From NCBI GenBank assembly GCA_022376925.1, contig JAIOJX010000032.1:102788794-102852793 (forward strand): DNA of 64,000 bases, read 5' to 3'. Positions 1,531 to 63,328 of this stretch are shown piece after piece (positions within the stretch are counted from its first letter, which is position 1; the number at the start of each line of letters is the position of its first letter). The notes beneath the pieces are model-generated. The model saw only the letters and a program-made list of their open reading frames with translations, did no database searches and was not told the origin of the DNA. A program made the position numbers and the translations under genes. The DNA is from Tragulus kanchil. Its lineage: Eukaryota > Chordata > Mammalia > Artiodactyla > Tragulidae.

Positions 1531-2360
1531 CCATTTGGTTTTATCTCCTCTGGAATTGGCCCAAGGTAGGCCCATAGCCATTTCAGCAGGGCTCCCTGCA
1601 TTCTGAGGAAAAACCATGAGAGTCCCACAGCCTGCATATGATTTGGGTTCAGTATCACTCATTCTGCCACCCTATCCTTTCTGATCTTCCATTCAGTTTC
1701 TTTATCTGTAAAACTTGTGGCAGCAATACCTTCCTGAAGGGCTGTTTTGGATATTAAATGAGATGCTCTATGACACCACTGCTGGCAGAAAATAGGTGTT
1801 CAACAAACAGGAGCTGATGCCTCCCAGCATCAGTCAACACTTGGGCACTAGGCTTAGTAGATTAAGGATGTTCTCCTGAACTGAGCTGAAGTGCATACTG
1901 CCTCAATGACTCATTCAAATCGATGTTCTTTGACCTGCAAAGTTGCTTACAGCTGGTACATTCTTTTTAACTATGTTGATGGTCTTCTGGTCCTAGCATC
2001 AGCCTACTTTCCAAAGGTGGTTTTAGTCTATTTGCATCTACAATGTTTTGATTTATAGTCAAACCCTCAGATGACAACCCTCCTTCTCTTATTTTCGAAG
2101 TCTTTGTGTATACCTCTTCAGCAAAACCTGTCAGCTGCCCTACAATTCTCAGGAGAGGAAATTCCATCCTTTGTACAGCCAATACCAGAGAAACTACTTC
2201 CTAGTGGTTTAGTTATAGCTGGCATGAGGTTATGAGTTTGGTTTGGAGGTTGTAAATGAGCCCATAGAGGGCAACTTATGAGTAGGTGTGCCGCCCTCAG
2301 TGAGGTTAGGCTGTTCTCGTGGGCTGAAGAGCATGGTTTCACTTGGGCATGCATTACTGT

Positions 2361-2404
2361 GATGGTGGTGATGGTGGTGGTGTAACAGTAGCAGCAGCAG
2401 CAAC
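2361..2404. repeat. Interrupted GGT/GAT and CAG triplet tract
   Basis: A short run of 'gatggtggt' type triplets is followed by 'gcagcagcagcaac'. The tract appears again unchanged at 3558-3601 in copy B of D1. Because triplet tracts are mutable, identical length in both copies argues for a very recent or artificial duplication. Confidence 0.8.
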
Positions 2405-2669
2405 ATGAGACTAGTGTTTTTTTCAATTCAGTTATACATTCTCTGTAAAAGAGAGAACGGGCTCCTCAACCTAGTAGAACACTGAGATTATCCTACCCAG
2501 TCTGTCATATTTACAGATGAAGATATAAAGAGTCACTAGCCCAGCCAGCAAAGGAGGGAAATAGCTCTGGTGAGCAATGAGGGGATAGCTATGGAGGTCC
2601 AACATTCAGCCTTCTATTTGGCTAATGAAAAACAAGGCCAAAGAGGTCATTACACAGTTAGAAAGCCAC

Positions 2670-2810
2670 AATTATCTCATTAATGCTCACTGGGGAAACA
2701 ATGGAAACAGTGACAGACTTTAGTTTCTTGGGCTCCAAAATCACTGTAGTCAGTGACTGCAGCCATGAAATTAGACGCTTGCTCCTTGGAAGAAAAGCTA
2801 TGAGAAACCT
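2670..2810 (+). mobile_element. BovB LINE fragment, truncated by junction D1
   Basis: Translation gives the C-terminal reverse-transcriptase part of BovB (ETVTDFSFLGSKITV...CSHEIRR). It is cut at 2810 where copy A of D1 ends. The same piece at 3867-4007 continues into a longer BovB 3' end. Confidence 0.85.
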
Positions 2811-3866
2811 CTTCCATTCAGTTTCTTTATGCATATGATTTGGGTTCAGTATCACTCATTCTGCCACCCTATCCTTTCTGATCTTCCATTCAGTTTCTTT
2901 ATCTGTAAAACTTGTGGCAGCAATACCTTCCTGAAGGGCTGTTTTGGATATTAAATGAGATGCTCTATGACACCACTGCTGGCAGAAAATAGGTGTTCAA
3001 CAAACAGGAGCTGATGCCTCCCAGCATCAGTCAACACTTGGGCACTAGGCTTAGTAGATTAAGGATGTTCTCCTGAACTGAGCTGAAGTGCATACTGCCT
3101 CAATGACTCATTCAAATCGATGTTCTTTGACCTGCAAAGTTGCTTACAGCTGGTACATTCTTTTTAACTATGTTGATGGTCTTCTGGTCCTAGCATCAGC
3201 CTACTTTCCAAAGGTGGTTTTAGTCTATTTGCATCTACAATGTTTTGATTTATAGTCAAACCCTCAGATGACAACCCTCCTTCTCTTATTTTCGAAGTCT
3301 TTGTGTATACCTCTTCAGCAAAACCTGTCAGCTGCCCTACAATTCTCAGGAGAGGAAATTCCATCCTTTGTACAGCCAATACCAGAGAAACTACTTCCTA
3401 GTGGTTTAGTTATAGCTGGCATGAGGTTATGAGTTTGGTTTGGAGGTTGTAAATGAGCCCATAGAGGGCAACTTATGAGTAGGTGTGCCGCCCTCAGTGA
3501 GGTTAGGCTGTTCTCGTGGGCTGAAGAGCATGGTTTCACTTGGGCATGCATTACTGTGATGGTGGTGATGGTGGTGGTGTAACAGTAGCAGCAGCAGCAA
3601 CATGAGACTAGTGTTTTTTTCAATTCAGTTATACATTCTCTGTAAAAGAGAGAACGGGCTCCTCAACCTAGTAGAACACTGAGATTATCCTACCCAGTCT
3701 GTCATATTTACAGATGAAGATATAAAGAGTCACTAGCCCAGCCAGCAAAGGAGGGAAATAGCTCTGGTGAGCAATGAGGGGATAGCTATGGAGGTCCAAC
3801 ATTCAGCCTTCTATTTGGCTAATGAAAAACAAGGCCAAAGAGGTCATTACACAGTTAGAAAGCCAC

Positions 3867-4497
3867 AATTATCTCATTAATGCTCACTGGGGAAACAATG
3901 GAAACAGTGACAGACTTTAGTTTCTTGGGCTCCAAAATCACTGTAGTCAGTGACTGCAGCCATGAAATTAGACGCTTGCTCCTTGGAAGAAAAGCTATGA
4001 GAAACCTAGACAGTGTATTCAAAAGCAGAGACATTACTGACAAATGTTCATATAATCAAAGCTATGGTTTTTCCAGTAATCATCTACAGATATGAGTTGG
4101 ACCGTAAAAAAGGCTAAGTGCCAAAGAATGGATGCTTTCGAACTGCGGTGCTGGAGAAGATACTTGAGAGTCCCTTGGACTGCAAGAAGATCAAGCCAGT
4201 AAATCTTAAAGGAAATCAATCCTTAATATTCACTGGAAGGACTGATGCTGAAGCTGAAGCTCCAATACTTTGGCCACCTGATTCAAAGAGCTGACTGATT
4301 GGAAAAGACCCTGATGTTAGGAAAGATTGGAGGCAGAAGGAGAAGGGGATGACGGAGGATGAGATGGTTAGATGGCATCGCTGACTCAATGGACATGAGT
4401 TTGAGTAAGTTCTGGGAGATGGGGAAGGAGAGGGAAGCCTGGTGCGCTATACTCCATGGGGTAACAGAGTCAGACACAACTGAGTGACTAACAAACA
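3867..4497 (+). mobile_element. BovB LINE 3' end (RTE class), degenerate
   Basis: Reading across frames gives typical BovB ORF2 C-terminal pieces: SFLGSKITV, CSHEIRR, GRKAMRNLDSVFKSRDIT, then 'FELRCWRRYLRVPW'-like, 'ILKEINP', 'LMLKLKLQYFGHL' and 'MRWLDGI'-like segments. Stops and frameshifts break the frame. The 3' tail reads 'gagtcagacacaactgagtg' and then an AAC-rich end. BovB is characteristic of ruminants (and of some squamates), which supports the host call. Confidence 0.9.
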
Positions 4498-5892: not shown

Positions 5893-5960
5893 TCTTGTTG
5901 TTAAGTCACTAAGTCGTGTCCAACTCTTTGTGAACCCATGTGCTTGCAATGGCAAACTGA
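5893..5960 (-). mobile_element. Short Bov-tA/BovB 3' tail fragment
   Basis: 'gttgttaagtcactaagtcg' followed by 'tgtccaactctttgtga' is the complement of the tail shared by BovB and Bov-tA. A 44-bp stretch of it recurs at the D2 junction (7123-7166). Confidence 0.75.
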
Positions 5961-5974
5961 AATAACAAAAAGAG

Positions 5975-8327
5975 AAAAATGTCTATAAAAATCAAAATGT
6001 CTAACCCCAATTGAGCATTTTCCCCAGAGTGTTACATTCCCCAAGCACATCTTCCTGTGCTATTCCCACTGCCAATTTGCCCTCCCAGGATGGTACATCA
6101 TTAGGAGTAATAGTTACCAAATGGACGGAGAAAGAGAGCCAGGGTGGATGGTAGTAAGAGTGGGAAGTGAATTCCCTGCTTTAGAAGGCTGTTCCCAAGC
6201 AATGGAAGACCAGACACTCTGGGACAAAAGTGGACATTCCAGTCTAATGCTGTGGTTCTATTTTTGAGGTCAAAGTGAATTTTTTTTCAACCTCATCCCA
6301 TCAGTGATATAGCAGAGGAAAACCCTCCCAGGGACCTGCAAGTTATTCATAGGAGTCATCCCTTCCACACTATTGCAACTTTAAGTCTTATTGTGTGTTT
6401 AGGAATATTTCTATGGGGAAAAAACGGGATGATTAAACTGGGCTTGGCTGGAAAGCCATCACCATAGCCTTAAAACCATGATTCTTAACCATTAACAAGG
6501 CTGTAGAGCATTTCAGTGGTTTTAATCCAGCTGGTAATAATATGGATCTGGCATCTTTCTGGTCAATGTGATGCAGGAAGTTTTTAAAATTATTTTGTCA
6601 CCAACATACTTCCAAATCAGATGTATGAGATGTGACTGGTGAGGCTTCATCTATCGTGAGCTTTCTCCATAGCTCATTCCTTCATTCAGCAAACCTTGGT
6701 GAAAACGTGCCATGTCCCAGGCCTTTGTTTGGCCTTTAGAGTCAAAGGTAACTAAGTATATCATCCACATTTCTCTTGATGATGTGGAAGCTTTATCTTA
6801 TATTTGGTCTCTGTACTCTGCTTTCTAATAAGGAAGCATTTTCTATATGATCATTCATCATTACTTTCTTTTTTTGCACAAAAATATGTCCCTCGATGAT
6901 CCTCAAGGACGAGTCTACAGAGATTCGGTCCAATATCCAGATGTGTGAGTACATTTAGAAGAGTCGCCAGACCTTTGGAACAATACTTCTTATAACTTGA
7001 TTCAGCTACAGAAACCTTTCTGAGACCCTTTTCAAGTTTAATATTGCTTTCCTGAGGCTCATCCATTCTCTGGTGCCTCTTATCTTAGGTTCTTCCAAGC
7101 CACCTGCTGCAGCTGACCCAGGCACTAAGTCGTGTCCAACTCTTTGTGAACCCATGTGCTTGCATGGAAAAAAACAAAAAATGTCTATAAAAATCAAAAT
7201 GTCTAACCCCAATTGAGCATTTTCCCCAGAGTGTTACATTCCCCAAGCACATCTTCCTGTGCTATTCCCACTGCCAATTTGCCCTCCCAGGATGGTACAT
7301 CATTAGGAGTAATAGTTACCAAATGGACGGAGAAAGAGAGCCAGGGTGGATGGTAGTAAGAGTGGGAAGTGAATTCCCTGCTTTAGAAGGCTGTTCCCAA
7401 GCAATGGAAGACCAGACACTCTGGGACAAAAGTGGACATTCCAGTCTAATGCTGTGGTTCTATTTTTGAGGTCAAAGTGAATTTTTTTTCAACCTCATCC
7501 CATCAGTGATATAGCAGAGGAAAACCCTCCCAGGGACCTGCAAGTTATTCATAGGAGTCATCCCTTCCACACTATTGCAACTTTAAGTCTTATTGTGTGT
7601 TTAGGAATATTTCTATGGGGGAAAAAAAACGGGATGATTAAACTGGGCTTGGCTGGAAAGCCATCACCATAGCCTTAAAACCATGATTCTTAACCATTAA
7701 CAAGGCTGTAGAGCATTTCAGTGGTTTTAATCCAGCTGGTAATAATATGGATCTGGCATCTTTCTGGTCAATGTGATGCAGGAAGTTTTTAAAATTATTT
7801 TGTCACCAACATACTTCCAAATCAGATGTATGAGATGTGACTGGTGAGGCTTCATCTATCGTGAGCTTTCTCCATAGCTCATTCCTTCATTCAGCAAACC
7901 TTGGTGAAAACGTGCCATGTCCCAGGCCTTTGTTTGGCCTTTAGAGTCAAAGGTAACTAAGTATATCATCCACATTTCTCTTGATGATGTGGAAGCTTTA
8001 TCTTATATTTGGTCTCTGTACTCTGCTTTCTAATAAGGAAGCATTTTCTATATGATCATTCATCATTACTTTCTTTTTTTGCACAAAAATATGTCCCTCG
8101 ATGATCCTCAAGGACGAGTCTACAGAGATTCGGTCCAATATCCAGATGTGTGAGTACATTTAGAAGAGTCGCCAGACCTTTGGAACAATACTTCTTATAA
8201 CTTGATTCAGCTACAGAAACCTTTCTGAGACCCTTTTCAAGTTTAATATTGCTTTCCTGAGGCTCATCCATTCTCTGGTGCCTCTTATCTTAGGTTCTTC
8301 CAAGCCACCTGCTGCAGCTGACCCAGG
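5975..8327. repeat. Tandem duplication D2 (~1.15-kb unit, offset 1202-1205)
   Basis: Copy A is 5975-7122 and copy B about 7177-8327. Between them, 7123-7176 resembles the DNA just left of copy A (5908-5975) but with several small deletions. Within the units I saw three extra bases in copy B, all in the G/A homopolymer near 6413 (copy B 7617-7628). The noisy junction looks like unpolished sequence. Confidence 0.93.
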
Positions 8328-11290: not shown

Positions 11291-12064
11291 AAAAAAGTTA
11301 TATTTTTAGCAAGGGAGCAATTTGCAAAGAAAAAAGTAATAATCAAGGAAAGCTGACCCTTCCAAGCAGAGCCTGCTGTTGGCAGACAGTACAACTGAGT
11401 CTGCAGGTTGCGTACTCAGGCCCCCTACAGTGAGTGGCCAACTCTGAGACAGTGAAAGCTGAGTCTGAATGGCAGGGGCTTGAGAGGAGTCCTGAAGGGC
11501 CACATTTCCCTATTTGGTGATGTGGGCAATGTGCGTAACCTCTCCGCACATCAGCCTCCATCTGCAAATCTGGAATGAAAGCATTCAGGGCTCCCATGAG
11601 AATTAATGAAGCAATGTATGTGAACTACATATGACATAAGAATATGATCATATTAACAGTAGCATTAGCAACTGACATTTTGGATGCTTCTTTTGAGACT
11701 AGATAAAAAGCGGCAAGTGGGGAAACAGGGTTAGACACTCTGAAGCCCCAGCTCTTAAGCAGGAATCTAACTAGTAGTTATGTTATTGTCCCAATAGAGT
11801 TGACTGGGCATTCAGAGACAGGCTGGGGAGCAGACTCTGGCCCCCCACTAGCCACAGGACTGTGTGTGATTCACACCCCTTCTCTGAGCCACAGCTGTGC
11901 ATTCCCTTTCCTTGAATAAACTCACTTCCTCTAGTAAGTCCTGTACTGACGTGATGGTGCAGGCAAATTGAGGAGGTCTAGGGGCTCCAGTTCCTGAACT
12001 CTTAAGATGGAGGTAAAGTGCTGGCTCATTTAACTCCTCATTAGTGTCCCAGGATTCCTTCCAA

Positions 12065-12530
12065 CAAGTACCACAAATAGAGTGCCTTAAAGCAACAGCA
12101 ATGTACTGTCTCACAGTTCTAGAAGTCAGCTCAGTTTAGTCACTCAGTCGTGTCCAACTTTTTGCCACCCCATGGACTGCAGCACGCCAGGTTTCCCTGT
12201 CCTTCACTATCATCCAGAGCTTGCTCAAACTCATGTCCATTGAGTCGGTGATGCCATCCGACCATCTCATCCACTGTCATCTCCTCCTCCTTCCACCTTC
12301 TATTTTTTCTTTCTAGAGGTCAGGCATCCAAAATTAAGGTGCCGACAGCTGCATTCTACCTCTGAAACCTTGTCCTTCCTCACCTTTTCTGAGCTTCTGG
12401 TGGTGGCTAGTCCATCCTTGGCTCCAGTCCCTGTCTCTGTTGTCACATGGCATTCTCATCACATGGTCATCTTATAAGGACACCAGTCACATTATATTAA
12501 GGGCCTGCCCTACTATGGTATGATCTCATC
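12065..12530 (-). mobile_element. MLT1-type LTR with nested BovB tail (copy A)
   Basis: LTR blocks ('tgccttaaagcaacagcaat', 'ctcacagttctagaagtca', 'cttataaggacaccagtcac') are split by a BovB 3' fragment at about 12127-12297. In copy B the same LTR occupies 13163-13735 and runs on to its natural end. Part of it returns a third time at 14490-14822 in D4. Confidence 0.8.
12127..12297 (-). mobile_element. BovB 3' tail, antisense, nested in LTR
   Basis: 'gtcactcagtcgtgtccaac' followed by 'ccatggactgcagcacgcca', 'caaactcatgtccattgagt' and 'gatgccatccgaccatctca' is the antisense BovB 3' end. It is repeated at 13225-13395 by D3. Confidence 0.85.
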
Positions 12531-13400
12531 AGTGGCCAACTCTGAGACAGTGAAAGCTGAGTCTGAATGGCAGGGGCTTGAGAGGAGTCCTGAAGGGCCA
12601 CATTTCCCTATTTGGTGATGTGGGCAATGTGCGTAACCTCTCCGCACATCAGCCTCCATCTGCAAATCTGGAATGAAAGCATTCAGGGCTCCCATGAGAA
12701 TTAATGAAGCAATGTATGTGAACTACATATGACATAAGAATATGATCATATTAACAGTAGCATTAGCAACTGACATTTTGGATGCTTCTTTTGAGACTAG
12801 ATAAAAAGCGGCAAGTGGGGAAACAGGGTTAGACACTCTGAAGCCCCAGCTCTTAAGCAGGAATCTAACTAGTAGTTATGTTATTGTCCCAATAGAGTTG
12901 ACTGGGCATTCAGAGACAGGCTGGGGAGCAGACTCTGGCCCCCCACTAGCCACAGGACTGTGTGTGATTCACACCCCTTCTCTGAGCCACAGCTGTGCAT
13001 TCCCTTTCCTTGAATAAACTCACTTCCTCTAGTAAGTCCTGTACTGACGTGATGGTGCAGGCAAATTGAGGAGGTCTAGGGGCTCCAGTTCCTGAACTCT
13101 TAAGATGGAGGTAAAGTGCTGGCTCATTTAACTCCTCATTAGTGTCCCAGGATTCCTTCCAACAAGTACCACAAATAGAGTGCCTTAAAGCAACAGCAAT
13201 GTACTGTCTCACAGTTCTAGAAGTCAGCTCAGTTTAGTCACTCAGTCGTGTCCAACTTTTTGCCACCCCATGGACTGCAGCACGCCAGGTTTCCCTGTCC
13301 TTCACTATCATCCAGAGCTTGCTCAAACTCATGTCCATTGAGTCGGTGATGCCATCCGACCATCTCATCCACTGTCATCTCCTCCTCCTTCCACCTTCTA

Positions 13401-15572
13401 TTTTTTCTTTCTAGAGGTCAGGCATCCAAAATTAAGGTGCCGACAGCTGCATTCTACCTCTGAAACCTTGTCCTTCCTCACCTTTTCTGAGCTTCTGGTG
13501 GTGGCTAGTCCATCCTTGGCTCCAGTCCCTGTCTCTGTTGTCACATGGCATTCTCATCACATGGTCATCTTATAAGGACACCAGTCACATTATATTAAGG
13601 GCCTGCCCTACTATGGTATGATCTCATCTTAACTAATCCCATCTGCAACAATCCTATTTCCAAACAAGAAGACATAGGAGGTAAGCAAGATTTAACATAT
13701 CCATTGAGGGAAGCACATTCAACTCAAAACAGTACCCAGATGGGTACCCTGAGTAGTAGAGACCTTCAGGACCCGAGGCTGACCTAGCATGATCTTCCCT
13801 GCAGTACTGGAGTTTTGGCCTTCCAGCTCCAGAGAAAACAGAAACCCAAATCCCTTTGGAATCTGGGGTGGAAATTTGGAGAGAGCAGTCACACTTTCCA
13901 GTGCCTAGTTTTCTTTGATGTAGCTTCCGGTTCACAGTGGGATGGCTTTGATAAAATGGAGGGGTAAGAGACCCACCCTTTCATCTTGAAAGATGAGGGA
14001 AGTAAAGTGTCAAAACTGCTATACTAGATTAGTGCTCCCTTTTCAGAGAACACAGCCCTATTCTAGAAACCATGAGAGGCAATAATCTGGCTCAAAAAGA
14101 AAAAAAAAAAAAAAAAACATTCTGTAGGATGCAGGAAGGGAAGAGAGCCAGCATTCTTAGTGTGAGAGCCTCCTCTGTGCCAGGTCATATGTGGAACGGT
14201 TTACAAACACCATCTCTTTCAGTCTTCGGGAGAATTCTTTGATGATCAACCCCATTGGACAAATAAGGAAACAGGTTAAAAGACATTAATTAAATATTTC
14301 CCAAGTCCCACAGCTAAAGAGGTGTCCATGCTAGGATTTAAATCCAGATTTGTTGCACAATCGAGTTTATAATCTTTCTTCTATGTTGTCTGTTGATAAT
14401 TTTAAATCAGATCACATATATAAGCACTTCAAGCATTATATCTGACAGAGGAGGAAATATGCATTTATATCCAGCCTTCCTTCCTCACCTTTTTTCTTTC
14501 TAGAGGTCAGGCATCCAAAATTAAGGTGCCGACAGCTGCATTCTACCTCTGAAACCTTGTCCTTCCTCACCTTTTCTGAGCTTCTGGTGGTGGCTAGTCC
14601 ATCCTTGGCTCCAGTCCCTGTCTCTGTTGTCACATGGCATTCTCATCACATGGTCATCTTATAAGGACACCAGTCACATTATATTAAGGGCCTGCCCTAC
14701 TATGGTATGATCTCATCTTAACTAATCCCATCTGCAACAATCCTATTTCCAAACAAGAAGACATAGGAGGTAAGCAAGATTTAACATATCCATTGAGGGA
14801 AGCACATTCAACTCAAAACAGTACCCAGATGGGTACCCTGAGTAGTAGAGACCTTCAGGACCCGAGGCTGACCTAGCATGATCTTCCCTGCAGTACTGGA
14901 GTTTTGGCCTTCCAGCTCCAGAGAAAACAGAAACCCAAATCCCTTTGGAATCTGGGGTGGAAATTTGGAGAGAGCAGTCACACTTTCCAGTGCCTAGTTT
15001 TCTTTGATGTAGCTTCCGGTTCACAGTGGGATGGCTTTGATAAAATGGAGGGGTAAGAGACCCACCCTTTCATCTTGAAAGATGAGGGAAGTAAAGTGTC
15101 AAAACTGCTATACTAGATTAGTGCTCCCTTTTCAGAGAACACAGCCCTATTCTAGAAACCATGAGAGGCAATAATCTGGCTCAAAAAGAAAAAAAAAAAA
15201 AAAAAACATTCTGTAGGATGCAGGAAGGGAAGAGAGCCAGCATTCTTAGTGTGAGAGCCTCCTCTGTGCCAGGTCATATGTGGAACGGTTTACAAACACC
15301 ATCTCTTTCAGTCTTCGGGAGAATTCTTTGATGATCAACCCCATTGGACAAATAAGGAAACAGGTTAAAAGACATTAATTAAATATTTCCCAAGTCCCAC
15401 AGCTAAAGAGGTGTCCATGCTAGGATTTAAATCCAGATTTGTTGCACAATCGAGTTTATAATCTTTCTTCTATGTTGTCTGTTGATAATTTTAAATCAGA
15501 TCACATATATAAGCACTTCAAGCATTATATCTGACAGAGGAGGAAATATGCATTTATATCCAGCCTTCCTTC
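13401..15572. repeat. Tandem duplication D4 (1083-bp unit, offset 1089)
   Basis: Copy A is 13401-14483 and copy B 14490-15572. The six filler bases with their flanks form a 15-bp match (ccttcctcacctttt) to 13472-13486, 71 bp inside the unit. The A-homopolymers near 14100 and 15190 are of similar length. D4 begins inside copy B of D3, so the two are chained. Confidence 0.94.
14160..14370 (+). mobile_element. MIR SINE (repeated at 15249-15460)
   Basis: The MIR order is clear: 'cctcctctgtgccaggtcat', 'acaaataaggaaacaggtta', 'cccaagtcccacagctaaag', and 'ctaggatttaaatccagatt'. The second copy comes from D4, not from a second insertion. Confidence 0.8.
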
Positions 15573-33630: not shown

Positions 33631-33634
33631 CATA

Positions 33635-43270: not shown

Positions 43271-43345
43271 TAGGGAGATAAGAGAGTGTACCTCATTGGG
43301 TTATTGCAATGACGGTGAAATAACATACCTACATTTCTTGCAGCA

Positions 43346-47705: not shown

Positions 47706-47884
47706 ACACAGTACCTCTCAAATTTTTCCAGAAAAGTGCCTCTATGTACAGGAGTAAGAGAGCCCAGCAGCTTGTAAAACTTAACTTGAAGGCCAATTAG
47801 AGCAAGTGCAAAATTTCATTGAAGTCTTCTGTTTTACCTTGTAAAAGAATACGACTTTTACACTCTGTTCCTCATAATATTACC

Positions 47885-48128: not shown

Positions 48129-49574
48129 TGTTTCCTCCACGGGTTCTTTAAATTAAAAAAGAATCAGTGGCATCTTCTAATTTATTGTCCACCTGTAGTT
48201 TGGAGCATCAGAGCCAGCCTGCGCCTTCTCAAGGTCCTGACCTGTATGACCATGGAATCAGAGGTATGACTGCCCAATTGTAAAAACATAAACAGGTACT
48301 ATTATCTCCAGTCCTCAGGATGACGGAGCAAAGTAAATATTTTTATTCTGTTTAAACCTTCGCCAAACTCAGGGTGACTCCCTCTGATACAGGGTTTCAT
48401 TTCATTCTTTATAAAATATAATGAAGGGCTTCTCTGGCAGCATGACAGCAACAATTGGGAGATATAGTACTCTTGAATGACACTGATGATGTGGAAGATG
48501 ACAGCAACAATGCATCTTGCACCAAGTAAGTGCCGGGCATTATAAAGACACAGTACCCGGCTTCCCTGGTGGTCCAGTGGGTAAGGACACCACCTTGCAG
48601 TGCAAAGGGCGCCGGTTCGATCCCTGGCCTGGGAAGATCCCACGTGCCGTGGAGCGGCTGGACTGATGTGTCCAATTACTGAGCCAGAGCTCTGGAGCAC
48701 ATGCACCCAGAGCCAATGCTCTGCGACAACAGAGGCCACCGCGACAGGACGCCCACACGGGCCAAAGAACAAACATGGATGAAGATAGACAGATGAAAGA
48801 CCAATAGAAGTGGCCCACCCATCCCCTTCCTCCCCCCACCTCAAAAAAAATACACAGTACCTCTCAAATTTTTCCAGAAAAGTGCCTCTATGTACAGGAG
48901 TAAGAGAGCCCAGCAGCTTGTAAAACTTAACTTGAAGGCCAATTAGAGCAAGTGCAAAATTTCATTGAAGTCTTCTGTTTTACCTTGTAAAAGAATACGA
49001 CTTTTACACTCTGTTCCTCATAATATTACCAGCTAACATTTGCTGAGCACTTAAAAGAAATGCAATTTCAAGCTTTTTCCACATGTGAATTCTTCTACCT
49101 TTTCGGTGTTTCTATGAAGCTGGCAGTAGTATTACCTCTATTCTGCAGGTGAGAAAACTGAGGTACAGAGAGGTTAACTAGTTTACTTGAGATTGCCCAG
49201 CTGGCGAGTGGGAGAGCCAGAATTTAGACCCAGAGAGTCTGGCTCCAGAGCCTGTGCCCTTTACCACTATGATGTGTTTCCTCCACGGGTTCTTTAAATT
49301 AAAAAAGAATCAGTGGCATCTTCTAATTTATTGTCCACCTGTAGTTTGGAGCATCAGAGCCAGCCTGCGCCTTCTCAAGGTCCTGACCTGTATGACCATG
49401 GAATCAGAGGTATGACTGCCCAATTGTAAAAACATAAACAGGTACTATTATCTCCAGTCCTCAGGATGACGGAGCAAAGTAAATATTTTTATTCTGTTTA
49501 AACCTTCGCCAAACTCAGGGTGACTCCTCTCTGATACAGGGTTTCATTTCATTCTTTATAAAATATAATGAAGG

Positions 49575-49866
49575 GCTTCTCTGGCAGCTCAATGGTAAAG
49601 AAACTACCTGCCGTTACAGGAGACACGGGTTCGATCACTGATCCAGGAAGATCCCACATGCTGCTGAGCAACAAAACCTATGTGCCACAGCTATTGAGTC
49701 TGAGTTCTAGAGCCCAGCAGTTGCAACTACTGAGCCCATGTCCCATGACTACTGAAGCCTGTGTACCCTAAAGCCCTTGCTCCACAACAAGACAAGCCAG
49801 TGGAGTGAGAAGGCCCCACTCGCCATAACTAGAGAAAAGCCCACACAGCAATGAAGACCCAGCACA
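49575..49866 (+). mobile_element. CHR-2 type SINE (repeated at 50687-50978)
   Basis: 'gggcttctctggcagctcaa', 'atccaggaagatcccacatg', 'ctgctgagcaacaaaaccta' and 'gcaatgaagacccagcacag' match the long ruminant SINE. The 3' end runs straight into an antisense BovB. Confidence 0.85.
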
Positions 49867-50290
49867 GTCCAGTGCAGTTCACTCACTCAGTCTTCTCTTT
49901 GCAACCCCATCGACTGCAGAATGCCAGACTTTCCTGTCCTTTATCATTCCCAGAGCCTGCTCAAACTCATGTCCACTGACTCAGTGATGCCATCCAACCA
50001 TCTCATCCTCTGTTGTTCCCTTCTCCTTTTGCCTTTTATTTTTCCCAACATCAGGCTCTTTTCCAATGAGTCATCTCTTTGCATCAGTTGGACAAAGTAT
50101 TGGAGTTTCAGCTTCAGCATTAGTCCTTCCCATGAATATCCAGGATTGATTTCCTTTAGGATTGACTGGTTTGATCTCCTTGCAGTCCAAGATGTTCTCA
50201 AGAGCCTTCTCCAACACCACAGTTCAAAAGCATCAAGTCTTCAGTGCTCAGCCTTCTTTATGGTCCAGCTCTCACATCCATACATGACTA
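49867..50290 (-). mobile_element. BovB 3' end, antisense, cut by junction D14
   Basis: The complement translates as MRTSWTARRSNQSILKEINP and further BovB ORF2 C-terminal sequence. It stops at 50290, where copy A of D14 ends. The uninterrupted version is at 50979-51702. Confidence 0.88.
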
Positions 50291-50978
50291 AACTAGCTCT
50301 TTTTAAACAATCGAGATTGCCCAGCTGGCGAGTGGGAGAGCCAGAATTTAGACCCAGAGATTTGTGCCCTTTACCACTATGATGTGTTTCCTCCACGGGT
50401 TCTTTAAATTAAAAAAGAATCAGTGGCATCTTCTAATTTATTGTCCACCTGTAGTTTGGAGCATCAGAGCCAGCCTGCGCCTTCTCAAGGTCCTGACCTG
50501 TATGACCATGGAATCAGAGGTATGACTGCCCAATTGTAAAAACATAAACAGGTACTATTATCTCCAGTCCTCAGGATGACGGAGCAAAGTAAATATTTTT
50601 ATTCTGTTTAAACCTTCGCCAAACTCAGGGTGACTCCCCTCTCTGATACAGGGTTTCATTTCATTCTTTATAAAATATAATGAAGGGCTTCTCTGGCAGC
50701 TCAATGGTAAAGAAACTACCTGCCGTTACAGGAGACACGGGTTCGATCACTGATCCAGGAAGATCCCACATGCTGCTGAGCAACAAAACCTATGTGCCAC
50801 AGCTATTGAGTCTGAGTTCTAGAGCCCAGCAGTTGCAACTACTGAGCCCATGTCCCATGACTACTGAAGCCTGTGTACCCTAAAGCCCTTGCTCCACAAC
50901 AAGACAAGCCAGTGGAGTGAGAAGGCCCCACTCGCCATAACTAGAGAAAAGCCCACACAGCAATGAAGACCCAGCACA

Positions 50979-51702
50979 GTCCAGTGCAGTTCACTCACTC
51001 AGTCTTCTCTTTGCAACCCCATCGACTGCAGAATGCCAGACTTTCCTGTCCTTTATCATTCCCAGAGCCTGCTCAAACTCATGTCCACTGACTCAGTGAT
51101 GCCATCCAACCATCTCATCCTCTGTTGTTCCCTTCTCCTTTTGCCTTTTATTTTTCCCAACATCAGGCTCTTTTCCAATGAGTCATCTCTTTGCATCAGT
51201 TGGACAAAGTATTGGAGTTTCAGCTTCAGCATTAGTCCTTCCCATGAATATCCAGGATTGATTTCCTTTAGGATTGACTGGTTTGATCTCCTTGCAGTCC
51301 AAGATGTTCTCAAGAGCCTTCTCCAACACCACAGTTCAAAAGCATCAAGTCTTCAGTGCTCAGCCTTCTTTATGGTCCAGCTCTCACATCCATACATGAC
51401 TACTGGGAAAACCATAGCTTTGACTATACAGAGTTTTGTCAGAAAGTGATATCTCTGCTTCTGAAAATGCTGTCCAGGTTTGTCATAGCTTTTCTTCCAA
51501 GGAGTAAGCATCTTTAAATTTCATGGCTGCAGTCATCATCTGTAGTAATTTTTAGAGCCCAAGAACATAAAGTCTGTCACTGTTTTCACTGTTTGCCCAT
51601 CTATTTGCCACAAAGTGATAGGACCTAATGCCATGATTTTTGTTTTTTGAGTGTTGAGTTTTAGGCCAGCTTTTTCAGTCTCCTCTTTCACCTTCATCAA
51701 GA
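50979..51702 (-). mobile_element. BovB 3' portion, antisense, longer copy
   Basis: Beyond the part shared with 49867-50290 it continues through 'gggaaaaccatagctttgac', 'gcttctgaaaatgctgtcca', 'ttccaaggagtaagcatctt', 'aaatttcatggctgcagtca' and 'atgatttttgttttttgagt', all antisense BovB ORF2. Frames are broken. It is truncated at its 5' end near 51702. Confidence 0.9.
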
Positions 51703-53828
51703 GCACGAAACACTAGGATATTCATCCCTCTGAGTCAGTCACATCTGATTGACTCCCAGCCTGTCCAGTGTGCAGTTCTGTGGCTGTGGGCAAATGTGCT
51801 CATCAAGCTTCCTTTTACTTATCCAAAGAACAGTCAAAGTATTATTACCATATCTGTGTGATGATCATACAAAGTCCTTCCAGGACTAAATAAGACAACA
51901 TATGGAAAGGTAGTAAAGTTGTGGTTGGTGAATCATTAAGATCTCAGTGAACAGAATTTATTTGGAGTCCATAATAGTGTATACTGCACAACCATTTCAG
52001 GAAACCATCCTCCTAAGAAGAACCAGAAAAGGCTCTAGAGTTGGATGTCTAGAATATGCATTTGCATACTCCTCAGAAATGTTTTTATTGCTTATTTATT
52101 GGAAGACTCTTGGAAGACCAGCTTCTGTGATCTGGAGCCTATTTCTGGAAACTCTTTTGCATCTATCCTCTCACAGGCAGATCCACTGAAGGCCCAGCTG
52201 AAGGATCCATCTATACCCATGATGAATATATAACCACCAGCACATAAGGTAATCGACAGGCAACAAAGCCTACCCTTTCACTCTGCCTGCCCAGTGTGGT
52301 TCTAAGCACCCCACCAGGCTAAGCAGTTTCCCTAGAGTGACAGAGCTGGGACATTGTAGAGCTGTGATTGGAACCCTGGTAGTCAGGCTCCATTCCTGCA
52401 CTTCACCATTAGCCTGGAGTGCTTCCAGCCATGCTATGATGCTTCTCACCAAATGCTAGCCACCATTCCACAGTCTGACAGGCCCCCATAACCCTGCCCA
52501 GTCTTTGCCTTTAGACCAGCACCTTCCCTGATCCCATGCTGTTCTCACCAGTAGCAAAGGTGATGAGGAGCCCAGAGCTCTGGTTCAGCCTCCCAGAGGG
52601 CCAAACCCCCACCTCCCTCCCAAGCCTGCCCTCCTCCCCGCAGTTCAACCCACTACAGCTGACTGGGGTCCCTCCCTCCCCAATAGTTTTGGAATCAAGA
52701 CTGATACTATTACACCCCTAGAACTCTCAGCAGGCTGGGAACTCAAACTCACTTTTTCAGTCTCCTCTTTCACCTTCATCAAGAGCACGAAACACTAGGA
52801 TATTCATCCCTCTGAGTCAGTCACATCTGATTGACTCCCAGCCTGTCCAGTGTGCAGTTCTGTGGCTGTGGGCAAATGTGCTCATCCAGCTTTCTTTTCC
52901 TTATCCAAAGAACAGTCAAAGTATTATTACCATATCTGTGTGATGATCATACAAAGTCCTTCCAGGACTAAATAAGACAACATATGGAAAGGTAGTAAAG
53001 TTGTGGTTGGTGAATCATTAAGATCTCAGTGAACAGAATTTATTTGGAGTCCATAATAGTGTATACTGCACAACCATTTCAGGAAACCATCCTCCTAAGA
53101 AGAACCAGAAAAGGCTCTAGAGTTGGATGTCTAGAATATGCATTTGCATACTCCTCAGAAATGTTTTTATTGCTTATTTATTGGAAGACTCTTGGAAGAC
53201 CAGCTTCTGTGGTCTGGAGCCTCTTTCTGGAAACTTTTTTGCATCTATCCTCTCACAGGCAGATCCACTGAAGGCCCAGCTGAAGGATCCATCTATACCC
53301 ATGATGAATATATAACCACCAGCACATAAGGTAATCGACAGGCAACAAAGCCTACCCTTTCACTCTGCCTGCCCAGTGTGGTTCTAAGCACCCCACCAGG
53401 CTAAGCAGTTTCCCTAGAGTGACAGAGCTGGGACATTGTAGAGCTGTGATTGGAACCCTGGTAGTCAGGCTCCATTCCTGCACTTCACCATTAGCCTGGA
53501 GTGCTTCCAGCCATGCTATGATGCTTCTCACCAAATGCTAGCCACCATTCCACAGTCTGACAGGCCCCCATAACCCTGCCCAGTCTTTGCCTTTAGACCA
53601 GCACCTTCCCTGATCCCATGCTGTTCTCACCAGTAGCAAAGGTGATGAGGAGCCCAGAGCTCTGGTTCAGCCTCCCAGAGGGCCAAACCCCCACCTCCCT
53701 CCCAAGCCTGCCCTCCTCCCCGCAGTTCAACCCACTACAGCTGACTGGGGTCCCTCCCCCTCCCCAATAGTTTTTGGAATCAAGACTGATACTATTACAC
53801 CCCCTAGAACTCTCAGCAGGCTGGGAAC
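51670..53828. repeat. Tandem duplication D15, diverged (offset 1082-1086)
   Basis: Copy A is 51670-52742, filler 52743-52751 (tcaaactca), copy B 52752-53828. Unlike the others it shows six substitutions: A positions 51805, 51811, 51817, 52130, 52141 and 52154, plus about four homopolymer-length changes. That is roughly 0.6% substitution divergence, the sort of level expected between alleles. Confidence 0.94.
52290..52435 (+). mobile_element. MIR SINE fragment (repeated at 53372-53517)
   Basis: 'ctagagtgacagagctggga', 'gctgtgattggaaccctggt' and 'caggctccattcctgcactt' fit the MIR 3' half. Duplicated by D15. Confidence 0.65.
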
Positions 53829-57929: not shown

Positions 57930-58295
57930 TCAATATAATTTGCCCAGGGCCTCTTCATGATCATATTTACTCCTACAACACCCTAGAGGGGAAAATATTA
58001 TCTCCATTTTTGGAGAACTGAGGGACAGGGGTCAGCAAACTGGCCCACCTCTGTAAATAAAGTTTAATGGGAACACAGCTACACTCATGCCTCTCTGTGC
58101 TGTCCACAGCTGTTTCTACACTACAGCAGCAGAGGAGAGTGTTGCAACAGAGAATATAGGCCTTGAGTATTCACTGTCTGGCTCTTTGAAGGAAAAAAAG
58201 TGCTGACCTCTCACCTCAGAAATTTGAGAAAATTCCCACTTTGATAAGTGGCAGAACCAGGACTCCAACAGAGACTTCACTCTAAATTCTGCATT
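57930..58295 (+). mobile_element. MIR SINE split by a hAT transposon
   Basis: 'ccctagaggggaaaatatta', 'tctccatttttggagaactg' before and 'gataagtggcagaaccagga' after the insert belong to one MIR, with the DNA transposon at 58026-58212 between them. Confidence 0.65.
58026..58212. mobile_element. Non-autonomous hAT-like DNA transposon
   Basis: Left end 'caggggtcagcaaactggcc', internal 'taaataaagtttaatgggaa' and 'cacagctacactcatgc', right end 'agtgctgacctctc' form a short inverted-terminal element of a familiar mammalian MER type. I do not assign the subfamily. The 3' part is repeated from 59213 by D16. Confidence 0.7.
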
Positions 58296-58452
58296 TTTAC
58301 CTTCCTTGCACAGTCCAACACAGCTCAACATTCAGCTATTCAGTAACTCTCTCCTTGTGACTACTACGGGGTGCATTGTGTCCCCCTACCTGACCCAGGC
58401 AGAATGTATATGTTGCAGTCCTAACCCATGTATCTCAGCATGTAACTTCCCC

Positions 58453-58494
58453 GTGTGTGTGTATGTGTCTGTGTGTCTGTGTGTGTGTGTGTTT
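58453..58494. repeat. (GT)n-rich microsatellite (repeated at 59573-59616)
   Basis: 'gtgtgtgtgtatgtgtctgt' leads into a purer GT run. Copy B is one unit longer. Such a tract should differ more between old duplicates. Confidence 0.92.
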
Positions 58495-59019
58495 GTGGGG
58501 CAGACGGTAGGGGAGCAATAAGGGAAGGCTCTTTTAAGGCTATGTTGCTTGATGGGAAGGAGAAGTAGGGATTAGCCAAGGAGTGGGAACTCTGAGCTAT
58601 GTGCTGTGCTCCTGTCCTTCCCATCAAGTAGTGATATGACCTCAGACCCACCTTCTCTTTTCTGGACCTTTACTTTCCTCTCAGGCTATAAAGGTAGCTT
58701 GGTCCTATGTAGCTTCCTTCAAGTTCTAAAAGCCTGTGGTATCTTTGGCATCAAATTCAGGCCAAATAAAAATTGCTTTTGTGTCTTTCCTACCCTAGAA
58801 TAATACACATTACTTTTCTACCCAAAATTAAATTGGGAATGTCCTTAGCAAGCCTCCAAGCTCCCTAAGGTCCAGGATGGAGTCTATCCAATGGGTGTGC
58901 CTCCCATTCTCAGGATAGACCCTAGTACAGTGAGAAGCAAAGGCCCTCTTGGTCTATGTCTTTTAGAGATGGTGAGGTCACCTTGTAAAATCAGAAACAT
59001 TAAAAGGGATCCTATCAGA

Positions 59020-59214
59020 ATTCCTAGTGGCTCAGTGGTAGAGAATCCTCCTGCCAATGCAGAAGACACAGGAAACACAGGTTTGATCCCTGGGTCAGGA
59101 AGATTCCCTGGAGTAGAAAATGGCAACACACTCCAGAATTCTAGCCTGGAAAATTCCATGGATAGAGGAGACTAGAAGGCTACAGTCCATGGGGTCGCAG
59201 TGTCAGACCCAACT
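59020..59214 (+). mobile_element. Bov-tA SINE (repeated at 60142-60338)
   Basis: 'ctagtggctcagtggtagag', 'gaatcctcctgccaatgcag', 'ccctggagtagaaaatggca', 'atggatagaggagactagaa' and 'catggggtcgcagtgtcaga' give a full Bov-tA. The first copy loses its tail at the D16 junction; the second ends 'acccaactgaacatg'. Confidence 0.9.
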
Positions 59215-60339
59215 CTGTGCTGTCCACAGCTGTTTCTACACTACAGCAGCAGAGGAGAGTGTTGCAACAGAGAATATAGGCCTTGAGTATTCACTGTCTG
59301 GCTCTTTGAAGGAAAAAAAGTGCTGACCTCTCACCTCAGAAATTTGAGAAAATTCCCACTTTGATAAGTGGCAGAACCAGGACTCCAACAGAGACTTCAC
59401 TCTAAATTCTGCATTTTTACCTTCCTTGCACAGTCCAACACAGCTCAACATTCAGCTATTCAGTAACTCTCTCCTTGTGACTACTACGGGGTGCATTGTG
59501 TCCCCCTACCTGACCCAGGCAGAATGTATATGTTGCAGTCCTAACCCATGTATCTCAGCATGTAACTTCCCCGTGTGTGTGTATGTGTCTGTGTGTCTGT
59601 GTGTGTGTGTGTGTTTGTGGGGCAGACGGTAGGGGAGCAATAAGGGAAGGCTCTTTTAAGGCTATGTTGCTTGATGGGAAGGAGAAGTAGGGATTAGCCA
59701 AGGAGTGGGAACTCTGAGCTATGTGCTGTGCTCCTGTCCTTCCCATCAAGTAGTGATATGACCTCAGACCCACCTTCTCTTTTCTGGACCTTTACTTTCC
59801 TCTCAGGCTATAAAGGTAGCTTGGTCCTATGTAGCTTCCTTCAAGTTCTAAAAGCCTGTGGTATCTTTGGCATCAAATTCAGGCCAAATAAAAATTGCTT
59901 TTGTGTCTTTCCTACCCTAGAATAATACACATTACTTTTCTACCCAAAATTAAATTGGGAATGTCCTTAGCAAGCCTCCAAGCTCCCTAAGGTCCAGGAT
60001 GGAGTCTATCCAATGGGTGTGCCTCCCATTCTCAGGATAGACCCTAGTACAGTGAGAAGCAAAGGCCCTCTTGGTCTATGTCTTTTAGAGATGGTGAGGT
60101 CACCTTGTAAAATCAGAAACATTAAAAGGGATCCTATCAGAATTCCTAGTGGCTCAGTGGTAGAGAATCCTCCTGCCAATGCAGAAGACACAGGAAACAC
60201 AGGTTTGATCCCTGGGTCAGGAAGATTCCCTGGAGTAGAAAATGGCAACACACTCCAGAATTCTAGCCTGGAAAATTCCATGGATAGAGGAGACTAGAAG
60301 GCTACAGTCCATGGGGTCGCAGTGTCAGACCCAACTGAA

Positions 60340-60840
60340 CATGTACACATGTCCTATGGAAATAAAATGATAGTTGTTAAGACCCTATGCCCATGTTATC
60401 ACACGCAGTTGTGACATGTGACATGTCCTATGGGACATGTGTCATTATCCCCACCCATTCACAGATAAGGAATAGGCATTAACATTTGTGGAATAGCAAG
60501 AGGCTTTAATGAAGGAAAGAGATTTGCTCACAGTCCTGAGTAATAACTAATCCTACATAAAGCTAAATCAAAACTGAAATTAACTCCAAAGCCCATGCCC
60601 TTCATTCATTCATTTAAAATATCATGCCTCGCACACAATGGATACTGCTGGCTTATCCCACACTATGGCATCCATAGCCCTGGAAGATCCAGAAGCAGAA
60701 AAAGAGGGAGTGGAGGAGGGGTGAAAAGGCAGACACACCCCTCTTCCCTGATTCAGGTCCTGCAGGCTAAAGCCTGGGCTGGACCAGGAGAAAATAAATT
60801 CTAAATTGGAAATGAAATTGAGACTTTAAAGAACTAACTG
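60340..60840. other. No gene seen; small internal direct repeat
   Basis: Near 60413-60442 the words 'gacatgtgacatgtcctatg' and 'ggacatgtg' repeat. Weak MIR-like text ('cccattcacagataagg') lies near 60453. Otherwise nothing recognisable. Confidence 0.45.
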
Positions 60841-60845
60841 GCCAG

Positions 60846-61126
60846 GGCTTTCCTTGTGGTCCAGTGGGTAAAGAGTCCACCTTGCAGTACAAGGGGCACC
60901 AATTCGATCCCTGGTCCAGGAAGATCCCATGTGCCACGAAGCGGCTGGACTAGTGTGTCCAATTACAAGCCAGCGCTCTGGAAAGCATGCACCCAGAGCC
61001 GGTGCTCTGCAATGAGAGAGGCCACTGCAGTGAGAGGCTCACACAGGTTAAAGAATAAGAATGGATGAAAATAAATAAGTAAAAAACCAATGCAAGAGGC
61101 CAAAATGTAAAAAGAAAAAGGAGAAA
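60846..61126 (+). mobile_element. CHR-type SINE, intermediate-age relative of the young subfamily
   Basis: Starts 'ggctttccttgtggtccagt'; a perfect 18-bp target-site duplication (aaagaactaactggccag) lies at 60828-60845 and 61127-61144. It keeps the diagnostic 3' words 'gaatggatgaaaataaataa' and 'accaatgcaagaggcc', which correspond to the young family's 'gacggatgaaaatagagaaa' and 'accaatagaagtggcc', but lacks the pyrimidine-rich stretch. Confidence 0.92.
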
Positions 61127-61172
61127 AAAGAACTAACTGGCCAGAAAATGCTCAAATCGGCTTTAAAGGGAT

Positions 61173-63328
61173 GCTCCATCAAACACATCTGAAGGCAATG
61201 ATTAGAGGGAAATAAATGTATTTCACGCTTGCATCTCAACAAGCTCTACTTGTTCAATCTACTCATTGTAAAAGGATGGGCCCACTATGGCAGGAGAGAC
61301 ACAGGGTCCCAGGGAGAGACAGAGCAGAGGATCCAGCCCAGCTGTGTGGGGTCAGAGACCTCCCTGAGGAGCCTCACAGGACAAACAGTCAAGCAAAGAC
61401 ATGGTGTGGAAACAGAGAAATGTCCACTATGGCTACAGTGACAGGTGAGTGGGCGTAGAGTCTGGAGAAGTGAGGGGAGGCAAGAACAGACCACAGAGGC
61501 CTTCCCAGGTCAAGGTGAGAATGCCAGACTTTGTTCTGAGGGTAAAAGAACCTTTACTGGATTTTAGGCAAAATAACAACAATCCAGCTTGCCTTTATAA
61601 AGTATAGTCTGGTTGTAGATTGGAGTAGAGATTGGACAAGTGAAGAGGCCAATTCAGGAAGCTTGTGATGAAATCTGAGGGATGATGGTTGTTTGGACCA
61701 GTAACCATGGAGATGGGAAGGGGGTGGTGTGGAGATGATTTCAAAGGGCCTAGCAGTATTCTATGGAGAAAGTTTTGTCATCTACAATTTCTCCAGAAGA
61801 AATTTACGACATCAGGAGGAATGTGTCATTACTGATCCAAAGATGTACTTGACTAAGATGACCCTGGGCAGGCAGCCAGGCCTTGCCCCTGATGAGGGTT
61901 GCTGGTGGCTCTGGAACATGGGGCTGGGAGGGAAGGGAAGGGGCTCAAGGGGCTGAGAACACTAGGACCAAAGTGTGGAAGTGAACTCACAGTCTCCATT
62001 ATCCAGCAGACTTGGGGTTCCTCCTGACTTAGACACTAACCACTTACAGAAGCCACTTGACCACCATGAGCTTAGAGTTCTCTATATGTTAAGTGGGTGT
62101 AATAAGACTTCTTTCTTACAAATCTTGCAGAGAGGTTGGGAAAGTTATAAATTGAGACCAATAAATTTGGTCCAAGCATAGTCCATTTATTTAGGCACTG
62201 GAGACTAAGAGATGTGAGCAGACCTGGAAGATACTCTGGAATTGAGCTATGCATTAACAAGGCTCCATCAAACACATCTGAAGGCAATGATTAGAGGGAA
62301 ATAAATGTATTTCACGCTTGCATCTCAACAAGCTCTACTTGTTCAATCTACTCATTGTAAAAGGATGGGCCCACTATGGCAGGAGAGACACAGGGTCCCA
62401 GGGAGAGACAGAGCAGAGGATCCAGCCCAGCTGTGTGGGGTCAGAGACCTCCCTGAGGAGCCTCACAGGACAAACAGTCAAGCAAAGACATGGTGTGGAA
62501 ACAGAGAAATGTCCACTATGGCTACAGTGACAGGTGAGTGGGCGTAGAGTCTGGAGAAGTGAGGGGAGGCAAGAACAGACCACAGAGGCCTTCCCAGGTC
62601 AAGGTGAGAATGCCAGACTTTGTTCTGAGGGTAAAAGAACCTTTACTGGATTTTAGGCAAAATAACAACAATCCAGCTTGCCTTTATAAAGTATAGTCTG
62701 GTTGTAGATTGGAGTAGAGATTGGACAAGTGAAGAGGCCAATTCAGGAAGCTTGTGATGAAATCTGAGGGATGATGGTTGTTTGGACCAGTAACCATGGA
62801 GATGGGAAGGGGGTGGTGTGGAGATGATTTCAAAGGGCCTAGCAGTATTCTATGGAGAAAGTTTTGTCATCTACAATTTCTCCAGAAGAAATTTACGACA
62901 TCAGGAGGAATGTGTCATTACTGATCCAAAGATGTACTTGACTAAGATGACCCTGGGCAGGCAGCCAGGCCTTGCCCCTGATGAGGGTTGCTGGTGGCTC
63001 TGGAACATGGGGCTGGGAGGGAAGGGAAGGGGCTCAAGGGGCTGAGAACACTAGGACCAAAGTGTGGAAGTGAACTCACAGTCTCCATTATCCAGCAGAC
63101 TTGGGGTTCCTCCTGACTTAGACACTAACCACTTACAGAAGCCACTTGACCACCATGAGCTTAGAGTTTCTCTATATGTTAAGTGGGTGTAATAAGACTT
63201 CTTTCTTACAAATCTTGCAGAGAGGTTGGGAAAGTTAAGTAAATTGAGACCAATAAATTTGGTCCAAGCATAGTCCATTTATTTAGGCACTGGAGACTAA
63301 GAGATGTGAGCAGACCTGGAAGATACTC
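61173..63328. repeat. Tandem duplication D17 (~1.07-kb unit, offset 1089-1092)
   Basis: Copy A is 61173-62236, filler 62237-62261 (25 bp), copy B 62262-63328. Copy A lacks one T near 62088 and two bases near 62147, both within 150 bp of its end; the rest looks identical. Confidence 0.94.

What the first reader, a model, noticed from the sequence alone, without database searches (positions are those of the whole stretch)
1634..63328. Seventeen direct tandem duplications of nearly constant length (~1.1 kb) across one 64-kb window
Direct copies follow each other at offsets 1197, 1202-1205, 1098, 1089, 1087, 1086-1087, 1107-1111, 1155, 1107-1110, 1113-1116, 1107-1108, 1127, 1146-1148, 1110-1124, 1082-1086, 1120-1122 and 1089-1092. 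The units share no sequence and cut through every kind of element. A constant length without constant content points to a length-dependent process. The simplest is an assembly in which pieces overlapping by ~1.1 kb were joined without merging. A biological process with a fixed ~1.1-kb step would be new.
Basis: partly seen in the sequence, partly recalled or inferred. Interest (0 to 1): 0.9.

Follow-up and report, generated by a model that had tools for sequence, protein, structure and literature searches.

The report
Assembly joins that repeat 1.1 kb
Seventeen pieces of about 1.1 kb appear twice in a row here, almost certainly because assembly software joined overlapping pieces without merging the overlaps, so this looks like an error in the sequence record and not biology.

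Summary
The window holds 17 direct tandem pairs, copy 1 length 1062-1219 bp (mean 1111, CV 3.7%), 98.5-100% identical, adding 19,058 bases, 30% of the window.

Three features point to an assembly artefact. (1) In 27 of 31 indels the copy missing bases is the one whose junction-facing end is nearer; 19 of 31 are homopolymer-run indels; the middle 60% of the units differs in 14 of 11,351 columns, the outer 40% in 64 of 7,565. (2) Eleven of 17 junctions carry 6-25 bp of filler. Of the nine fillers of at least 9 bp, four match same-strand sequence within about 75 bp of a unit boundary, two of them with bases missing as in noisy reads; a fifth is weak and four have no clear source. (3) Length is constant while content and piece length (1834-6463 bp) vary.

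Best explanation: consecutive consensus blocks share a stretch of fixed length, probably the node of a wtdbg-type assembler, and were concatenated without merging it. The artefact verdict is strong; the software is inferred from recalled defaults. The closest known kind is the homotype false duplication (PMC8081667). No reads, whole genome or independent assembly could be examined.

The parts
1633..4007 (.). Pair 1: copies 1633-2810 and 2830-4007, filler 19 bp
   Evidence: 100% over 1178 bp; filler equals unit bases 54-72, same strand
5904..8327 (.). Pair 2: copies 5904-7122 and 7120-8327
   Evidence: 98.5%; copy 2 lacks 14 bases within the first 75 bp of the unit
11433..13628 (.). Pair 3: copies 11433-12530 and 12531-13628, no filler
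   Evidence: 100% over 1098 bp
13401..15572 (.). Pair 4: copies 13401-14483 and 14490-15572, filler 6 bp
   Evidence: 100% over 1083 bp
18869..21017 (.). Pair 5: copies 18869-19930 and 19954-21017, filler 23 bp
   Evidence: 99.8%; filler resembles, with bases missing, the sequence 43-70 bp upstream of copy 1
22995..25171 (.). Pair 6: copies 22995-24084 and 24082-25171
   Evidence: 99.6%
24980..27185 (.). Pair 7: copies 24980-26074 and 26087-27185, filler 12 bp
   Evidence: 99.6%; four single bases missing from copy 1 near its end; filler has no clear local source
26863..29168 (.). Pair 8: copies 26863-28012 and 28019-29168, filler 6 bp
   Evidence: 99.7%
30714..32913 (.). Pair 9: copies 30714-31806 and 31824-32913, filler 17 bp
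   Evidence: 99.5%; filler has no clear local source
33632..35836 (.). Pair 10: copies 33632-34722 and 34748-35836, filler 25 bp
   Evidence: 99.5%; part of the filler resembles, with bases missing, the sequence 26-45 bp past copy 2
35779..37993 (.). Pair 11: copies 35779-36885 and 36886-37993, no filler
   Evidence: 99.9%
41014..43271 (.). Pair 12: copies 41014-42143 and 42141-43271
   Evidence: 99.9%
47309..49588 (.). Pair 13: copies 47309-48441 and 48457-49588, filler 15 bp
   Evidence: 99.7%; first 14 bases of the filler equal bases 42-55 of copy 2
49189..51402 (.). Pair 14: copies 49189-50290 and 50313-51402, filler 22 bp
   Evidence: 98.6%; copy 2 lacks 14 bases near its start; filler has no clear local source
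51670..53828 (.). Pair 15: copies 51670-52742 and 52752-53828, filler 9 bp
   Evidence: 99.1%, with six substitutions in the 5' half; filler has no clear local source
58093..60336 (.). Pair 16: copies 58093-59214 and 59213-60336
   Evidence: 99.8%
61173..63328 (.). Pair 17: copies 61173-62236 and 62262-63328, filler 25 bp
   Evidence: 99.7%; filler weakly resembles unit bases 55-71, but the reverse strand scores equally

Best explanation
The pairs are probably not in the animal's DNA. They are overlaps between consecutive consensus blocks of a long-read assembly that were concatenated without merging (a homotype false duplication). The overlap has a fixed nominal length set by the software, which is why about 1.1 kb recurs whatever the sequence. 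The most likely source (about 0.6 of the 0.96 given below) is a wtdbg-type fuzzy-Bruijn-graph assembler, in which, as I recall, neighbouring edges share one node of 1024 read bases by default, a consensus is made per edge, and edges are then joined by aligning the shared node. Where that join fails, the node is written twice. Shown here: the pairs, their constant length, the polarity of the indels, the local origin of four of nine testable fillers, and the minimum unit spacing. Inferred: unmerged overlap as the cause. Inferred and partly recalled: the software family.
For: Constant length (17 pairs, 1062-1219 bp, CV 3.7%) beside widely varying length of the 16 pieces between junctions (1834-6463 bp, CV 45%). 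The copy that lacks bases is the one nearer the junction in 27 of 31 indels: in the 3' half copy 1 is short in 15 of 15, in the 5' half copy 2 is short in 12 of 16 (Fisher p 1.6e-5; one vote per pair and half 6:2 against 0:9, p 0.002). Flipping copy labels by pair gives P 0.0007. 19 of 31 indels are homopolymer-run indels. 14 of 11,351 columns differ in the middle 60% of the units, 64 of 7,565 in the outer 40%. Fillers: over the nine of at least 9 bp, the summed best same-strand match to four local 120-bp regions is 94.5 against a null of 65.0 +/- 4.6 (0 of 2000 reach it); the reverse strand gives 70.5 (P 0.09). Unit starts lie at least 732 bp apart in collapsed coordinates (P 0.007 under uniform placement, a test chosen after seeing the data), as expected if nodes may overlap only in part. 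PMC8081667 (passages) describes homotype duplications from overlapping sequences at contig boundaries and ties one example to a FALCON bug, later fixed.
Against: No reads, depth or assembly record were available, so the artefact is inferred from sequence alone. The node length (1024), bin size (256) and node overlap limit (256) of wtdbg2 are recalled; its paper is not held, and the passages seen show only that node-len is set by users to 1536-2560. Mean 1111 bp exceeds 1024 by 8.5%; I put this down to deletion-biased reads and alignment slack, untested. If lengths are scaled by that factor, the expected minimum spacing is about 833 bp and two of 16 spacings (732, 776) fall below it; two of five unit overlaps (323 and 400 bp) exceed the recalled limit. 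Seventeen failed joins in 64 kb is very many; one paper seen in passages reports duplication ratios of only about 1 for all its assemblers, wtdbg2 included, on C. elegans (PMC12037172), so this would not be the program's usual behaviour. Four of 31 indels go against the polarity; 13 of 14 substitutions lie in the 5' half, an asymmetry I do not explain, six of them in pair 15 away from the unit ends. Four of nine fillers (pairs 7, 9, 14, 15) have no clear local source and pair 17 matches both strands equally.
Confidence: 0.96

Rival explanations
1. Unmerged overlaps, but from another pipeline step (overlap-layout-consensus bug, gap filling, joining of overlapping local assemblies), not wtdbg-type nodes. 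This is a share of the 0.96 above, not an addition to it.
For: Makes the same sequence predictions; PMC8081667 ties a homotype duplication in the hummingbird assembly to a FALCON bug (passages).
Against: [quoted passage not shown] Fixed-step polishing chunks would give regular pieces, whereas these run from 1834 to 6463 bp.
Confidence: 0.35
2. A biological burst of tandem duplication with a fixed step of about 1.1 kb (replication-coupled, joined by polymerase theta with templated inserts).
For: Short inserts at 11 of 17 junctions, two of them carrying exact copies (19 and 14 bases) of nearby sequence, which recalls templated insertions of polymerase-theta joining (recalled).
Against: Would not make homopolymer deletions cluster at the junction-facing end of each copy, nor inserts that resemble neighbouring sequence with bases missing (pairs 5 and 10); needs 17 events in about 45 kb of original DNA, all too recent to have diverged (14 of 11,351 middle columns differ), at one length within 3.7%. 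Tandem duplicator tumours, as recalled, have median spans near 10 kb or more with wide spread.
Confidence: 0.01
3. Heterotype false duplication: two diverged haplotypes placed in tandem.
For: Pair 15 carries six substitutions, which could be allelic.
Against: Three of 17 pairs are identical (1, 3, 4) and the middle of the units differs in 14 of 11,351 columns; length would follow local heterozygosity, not a constant.
Confidence: 0.02
4. The pairs were put into the record on purpose (a planted or simulated sequence).
For: The regularity is striking.
Against: Error polarity and noisy fillers look like consensus ends and would be an unusual thing to simulate.
Confidence: 0.01

Closest known systems
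Homotype false duplication, type 'overlapping sequences at contig boundaries' (PMC8081667; also PMC9516828)
   Same: Tandem copies of one locus at piece boundaries, near-identical, with poorer consensus at the boundary.
   Different: Here the length is fixed near 1.1 kb, there is no N between the copies, and 17 occur in 64 kb; the published type is often as long as a corrected read and, after scaffolding, has a gap between copies (passages).
Unmerged shared nodes between edges of a wtdbg/wtdbg2 fuzzy Bruijn graph (recalled)
   Same: Fixed nominal node length near 1 kb; variable edge length; partial overlap of neighbouring nodes.
   Different: I saw no description of this failure in the listings (25 of 80 rows shown) or in the passages read; the link is inference from recalled defaults.
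Tandem duplicator phenotype in tumours (recalled)
   Same: Many tandem duplications with preferred sizes.
   Different: Recalled sizes of about 10 kb and larger with wide spread; not 17 in 64 kb with 3.7% length variation and polarised homopolymer indels.

Membership tests
Homotype false duplication at piece boundaries | Two near-identical copies of one locus placed in tandem | tested here: met
   17 pairs, 98.5-100%; that both come from one locus is the inference under test
Homotype false duplication at piece boundaries | Consensus quality differs between copies | tested here: met
   27 of 31 indels have the short copy on its junction-facing half; 64 of 7,565 outer against 14 of 11,351 middle columns differ. 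An indirect test, without read depth
Homotype false duplication at piece boundaries | No haplotype-specific variants between copies | tested here: inconclusive
   Few differences overall, but pair 15 has six substitutions; no reads to test alleles
Homotype false duplication at piece boundaries | Low read depth over the copies, discordant reads, k-mer copy number excess | not testable with these tools
   No reads available
[quoted passage not shown]
   No assembly gap: the window holds only A, C, G and T. A read-depth gap, which PMC9516828 accepts in its place (passages), cannot be tested
wtdbg-type unmerged node | Duplicate length constant whatever the content | tested here: met
   CV 3.7% over 17 pairs
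wtdbg-type unmerged node | Duplicate length equals the node length (1024 by default, recalled; users set other values) | tested here: inconclusive
   Mean 1111, 8.5% above; values of 1536-2560 are reported by users
wtdbg-type unmerged node | Neighbouring nodes overlap by at most 256 read bases (recalled) | tested here: inconclusive
   Unit overlaps 58, 192, 228, 323 and 400 bp; minimum start spacing 732 bp
wtdbg-type unmerged node | The assembly was made with wtdbg or wtdbg2 | not testable with these tools
   Window source not named; own-genome search unanswered in all eight tries
Biological fixed-step tandem duplication | Differences between copies spread evenly | tested here: not met
   Indels clustered at junction-facing ends

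The most novel reading that the evidence does not exclude
A germline or cell-line process that makes tandem duplications of a fixed length near 1.1 kb, all very recent, joined with short inserts copied from nearby DNA.
Probability: 0.01. Interest if true: 0.95.

Novelty: not a real feature. Interest (0 to 1): 0.12.

Why it matters
As biology it probably does not matter. As quality control it does: 30% of this record's length here is the second copy of something. If that were genome-wide it would fake exon and regulatory duplications, inflate genome size and mislead copy-number studies. Fixed length, junction-facing homopolymer deletions and noisy local filler together form a signature that could be looked for in an assembly without reads.

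Tried and rejected
Anchored test: the fillers do not simply continue the flanks. Left-anchored to the sequence after copy 2 they score 22 against 19.7 +/- 5.2 (143 of 400 random draws reach it), right-anchored to the sequence before copy 1 they score 19 against 18.6 +/- 5.5 (195 of 400); unanchored in the same short flanks, 60 (13 of 400) and 49 (283 of 400) against 51.0 +/- 4.5 (11 fillers). The likeness is clear only when offsets of tens of bases are allowed.

Single filler comparisons are 72 in all and uncorrected; besides the five reported, reverse-strand matches with P below 0.05 occur for pairs 1, 9, 10, 15 and 17. The summed test is the one I rely on.

Bin lattice: the 16 start-to-start spacings showed no multiple of 256 bp to my eye; I ran no formal test.

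Repeats across boundaries: self-hits below 97% identity cross the entry or exit of 3 of 17 pairs (1, 8, 14) and no junction. This shows that some units cut through dispersed repeats but does not separate artefact from biology. Tandem Repeats Finder (longest period 500) cannot see these pairs and listed 13 rows of short arrays.

Identification of the source: Rfam gave no match at gathering scores; 10 of the 27 ORFs gave no Pfam match at E 0.01; one stretch of 6,401 bases had no match among plasmids. One ORF (44218-44622) resembles the C-terminal part of BovB reverse transcriptase as I recall it, so a ruminant is plausible but untested.

Literature (10 searches, all used): listings, some capped (20 of 178, 20 of 25, 25 of 80), and passages, not full text, of 11 papers. 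None that I saw describes this failure. PMC13251582 looked for artificial duplications in wtdbg2 assemblies only above 100 kb. PMC12174438 gives span classes in units that do not fit my recollection; sizes quoted are recalled. PMC10372904 reports a sika deer assembly made with wtdbg 1.2.8 from PacBio reads; I have no evidence that the window comes from it.
Full report
OBSERVATION. A self-BLAST of the 64,000-base window shows 17 direct, adjacent, near-identical pairs. Copy 1 lengths are 1062-1219 bp (mean 1111, SD 41, CV 3.7%), start offsets 1082-1216, identity 98.5-100%; the copies overlap by up to 3 bp, abut, or are separated by 6-25 bp. The extra copies amount to 19,058 bases, 29.8% of the window. 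Apart from the overlaps between neighbouring units, the other direct matches of 150 bp or more are dispersed repeats at 77-92% identity. One correction to 'the units share no sequence': five neighbouring unit pairs overlap by 58-400 bp, and some units carry copies of the same dispersed repeats.

WHAT THE COPIES DISAGREE ON. I aligned each pair end to end and listed the differences: 31 indels in 14 pairs and 14 substitutions in 7 pairs; pairs 1, 3 and 4 are identical. In the 3' half of the unit copy 1 is the short one in 15 of 15 indels. In the 5' half copy 2 is the short one in 12 of 16 (Fisher p 1.6e-5; with one vote per pair and half, 6:2 against 0:9, p 0.002). Thus in 27 of 31 the missing bases lie in the copy whose junction-facing end is nearer. 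Relabelling the copies at random by pair reaches this in 0.07% of 200,000 trials. Nineteen of 31 are homopolymer-run indels. The middle 60% of the units differs in 14 of 11,351 columns, the outer 40% in 64 of 7,565. This is what two independent consensus blocks give when each gets worse towards its own end. I know of no reason for real duplicates to lose homopolymer bases at the junction side of each copy. Against this reading: four indels go the other way (pairs 2, 5, 14 and 16). Thirteen of the 14 substitutions lie in the 5' half, seven of them in the first 5% of the unit and six in pair 15; the lack of a matching group at the 3' end, and the six in pair 15, are unexplained.

THE FILLER AT THE JUNCTIONS. 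Eleven of 17 junctions carry 6-25 bp between the copies. They do not simply continue the flanks. When offsets are allowed, several resemble sequence tens of bases away on the same strand: pair 1 equals unit bases 54-72 exactly; pair 13 has 14 bases equal to bases 42-55 of copy 2; pair 5 resembles, with five bases missing, the sequence 43-70 bp upstream of copy 1; pair 10 in part resembles, with three bases missing, the sequence 26-45 bp past copy 2; pair 17 is a weaker likeness of unit bases 55-71. Over the nine fillers of at least 9 bp (the two of 6 bp were dropped) the summed same-strand score is 94.5 against a null of 65.0 +/- 4.6, reached in 0 of 2000 draws; the reverse strand gives 70.5, P 0.09. 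Singly, the four clear cases have P 0.012-0.018 in that test (its null includes the true places), pair 17 has P 0.06 with the reverse strand equally good, and pairs 7, 9, 14 and 15 show no clear source. The missing bases in pairs 5 and 10 fit noisy long-read sequence left at a block end. Exact templated inserts of a repair polymerase would be a possible reading for pairs 1 and 13 alone.

WHY THE LENGTH IS CONSTANT. The 16 pieces between junctions run from 1834 to 6463 bp (CV 45%), while the overlaps vary by 3.7%. PMC8081667 says that homotype duplicates at contig boundaries are often as long as a corrected read (passages). A fixed overlap is more natural where the assembler works with nodes of set length. 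In wtdbg-type assemblers, as I recall, reads are cut into 256-bp bins, a node is 1024 read bases by default, neighbouring nodes may overlap by up to 256, and a consensus is made for each edge between two nodes and joined to the next over the shared node. That predicts a duplicate near 1 kb when a join fails, and a minimum distance between units. Observed: mean 1111 bp, and unit starts at least 732 bp apart in collapsed coordinates (P 0.007 under uniform placement, a test chosen after seeing the data), near 1024 minus 256. Deviations: 8.5% above 1024; if lengths are scaled by that factor, two of 16 spacings fall below the expected minimum; two of five overlaps (323 and 400 bp) are above the recalled limit. 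The wtdbg2 paper is not held. Papers that used the program report node-len values of 1536, 2048, 2304 and 2560 (passages), all multiples of 256. PMC12037172 (passages) reports duplication ratios near 1 for its assemblers, wtdbg2 included, on C. elegans, so dense failure of joins would not be usual. I put the software family at about 0.6 and the artefact at 0.96.

WHAT IS KNOWN. Homotype false duplications from overlapping sequences at contig boundaries are described in PMC8081667 (passages), one example tied to a FALCON bug, and measured in PMC9516828 (passages). This case resembles them but has a fixed length, no N between copies and a high density. I saw no description of this particular failure in the listings and passages I could see.

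LIMITS. Whether the pattern is genome-wide is unknown.

VERDICT.

Noticed in passing
51670-53828: Pair 15 alone carries six substitutions in its 5' half, in two groups of three spaced 6-13 bp apart; they do not look like piece-end errors and may be allelic or due to wrong polishing.
   Followed up: partly
44218-44622: ORF resembling, from memory, the C-terminal part of a BovB LINE reverse transcriptase; Pfam gave no match at E 0.01.
   Followed up: partly
836-1155, 25485-25803, 29765-30074, 45995-46205, 46470-46789, 47413-47694, 60845-61101: A dispersed repeat of about 200-320 bp in at least seven places besides its duplicated copies (one on the other strand), 79-92% alike; several copies lie in stop-free stretches of more than 120 codons.
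   Followed up: no
3888-4442 and 51036-51599: Two inverted copies of a repeat of about 565 bp, 81% alike, each crossing the exit of a copy 2 (pairs 1 and 14) and therefore, by coordinates, cut short at the end of copy 1.
   Followed up: partly
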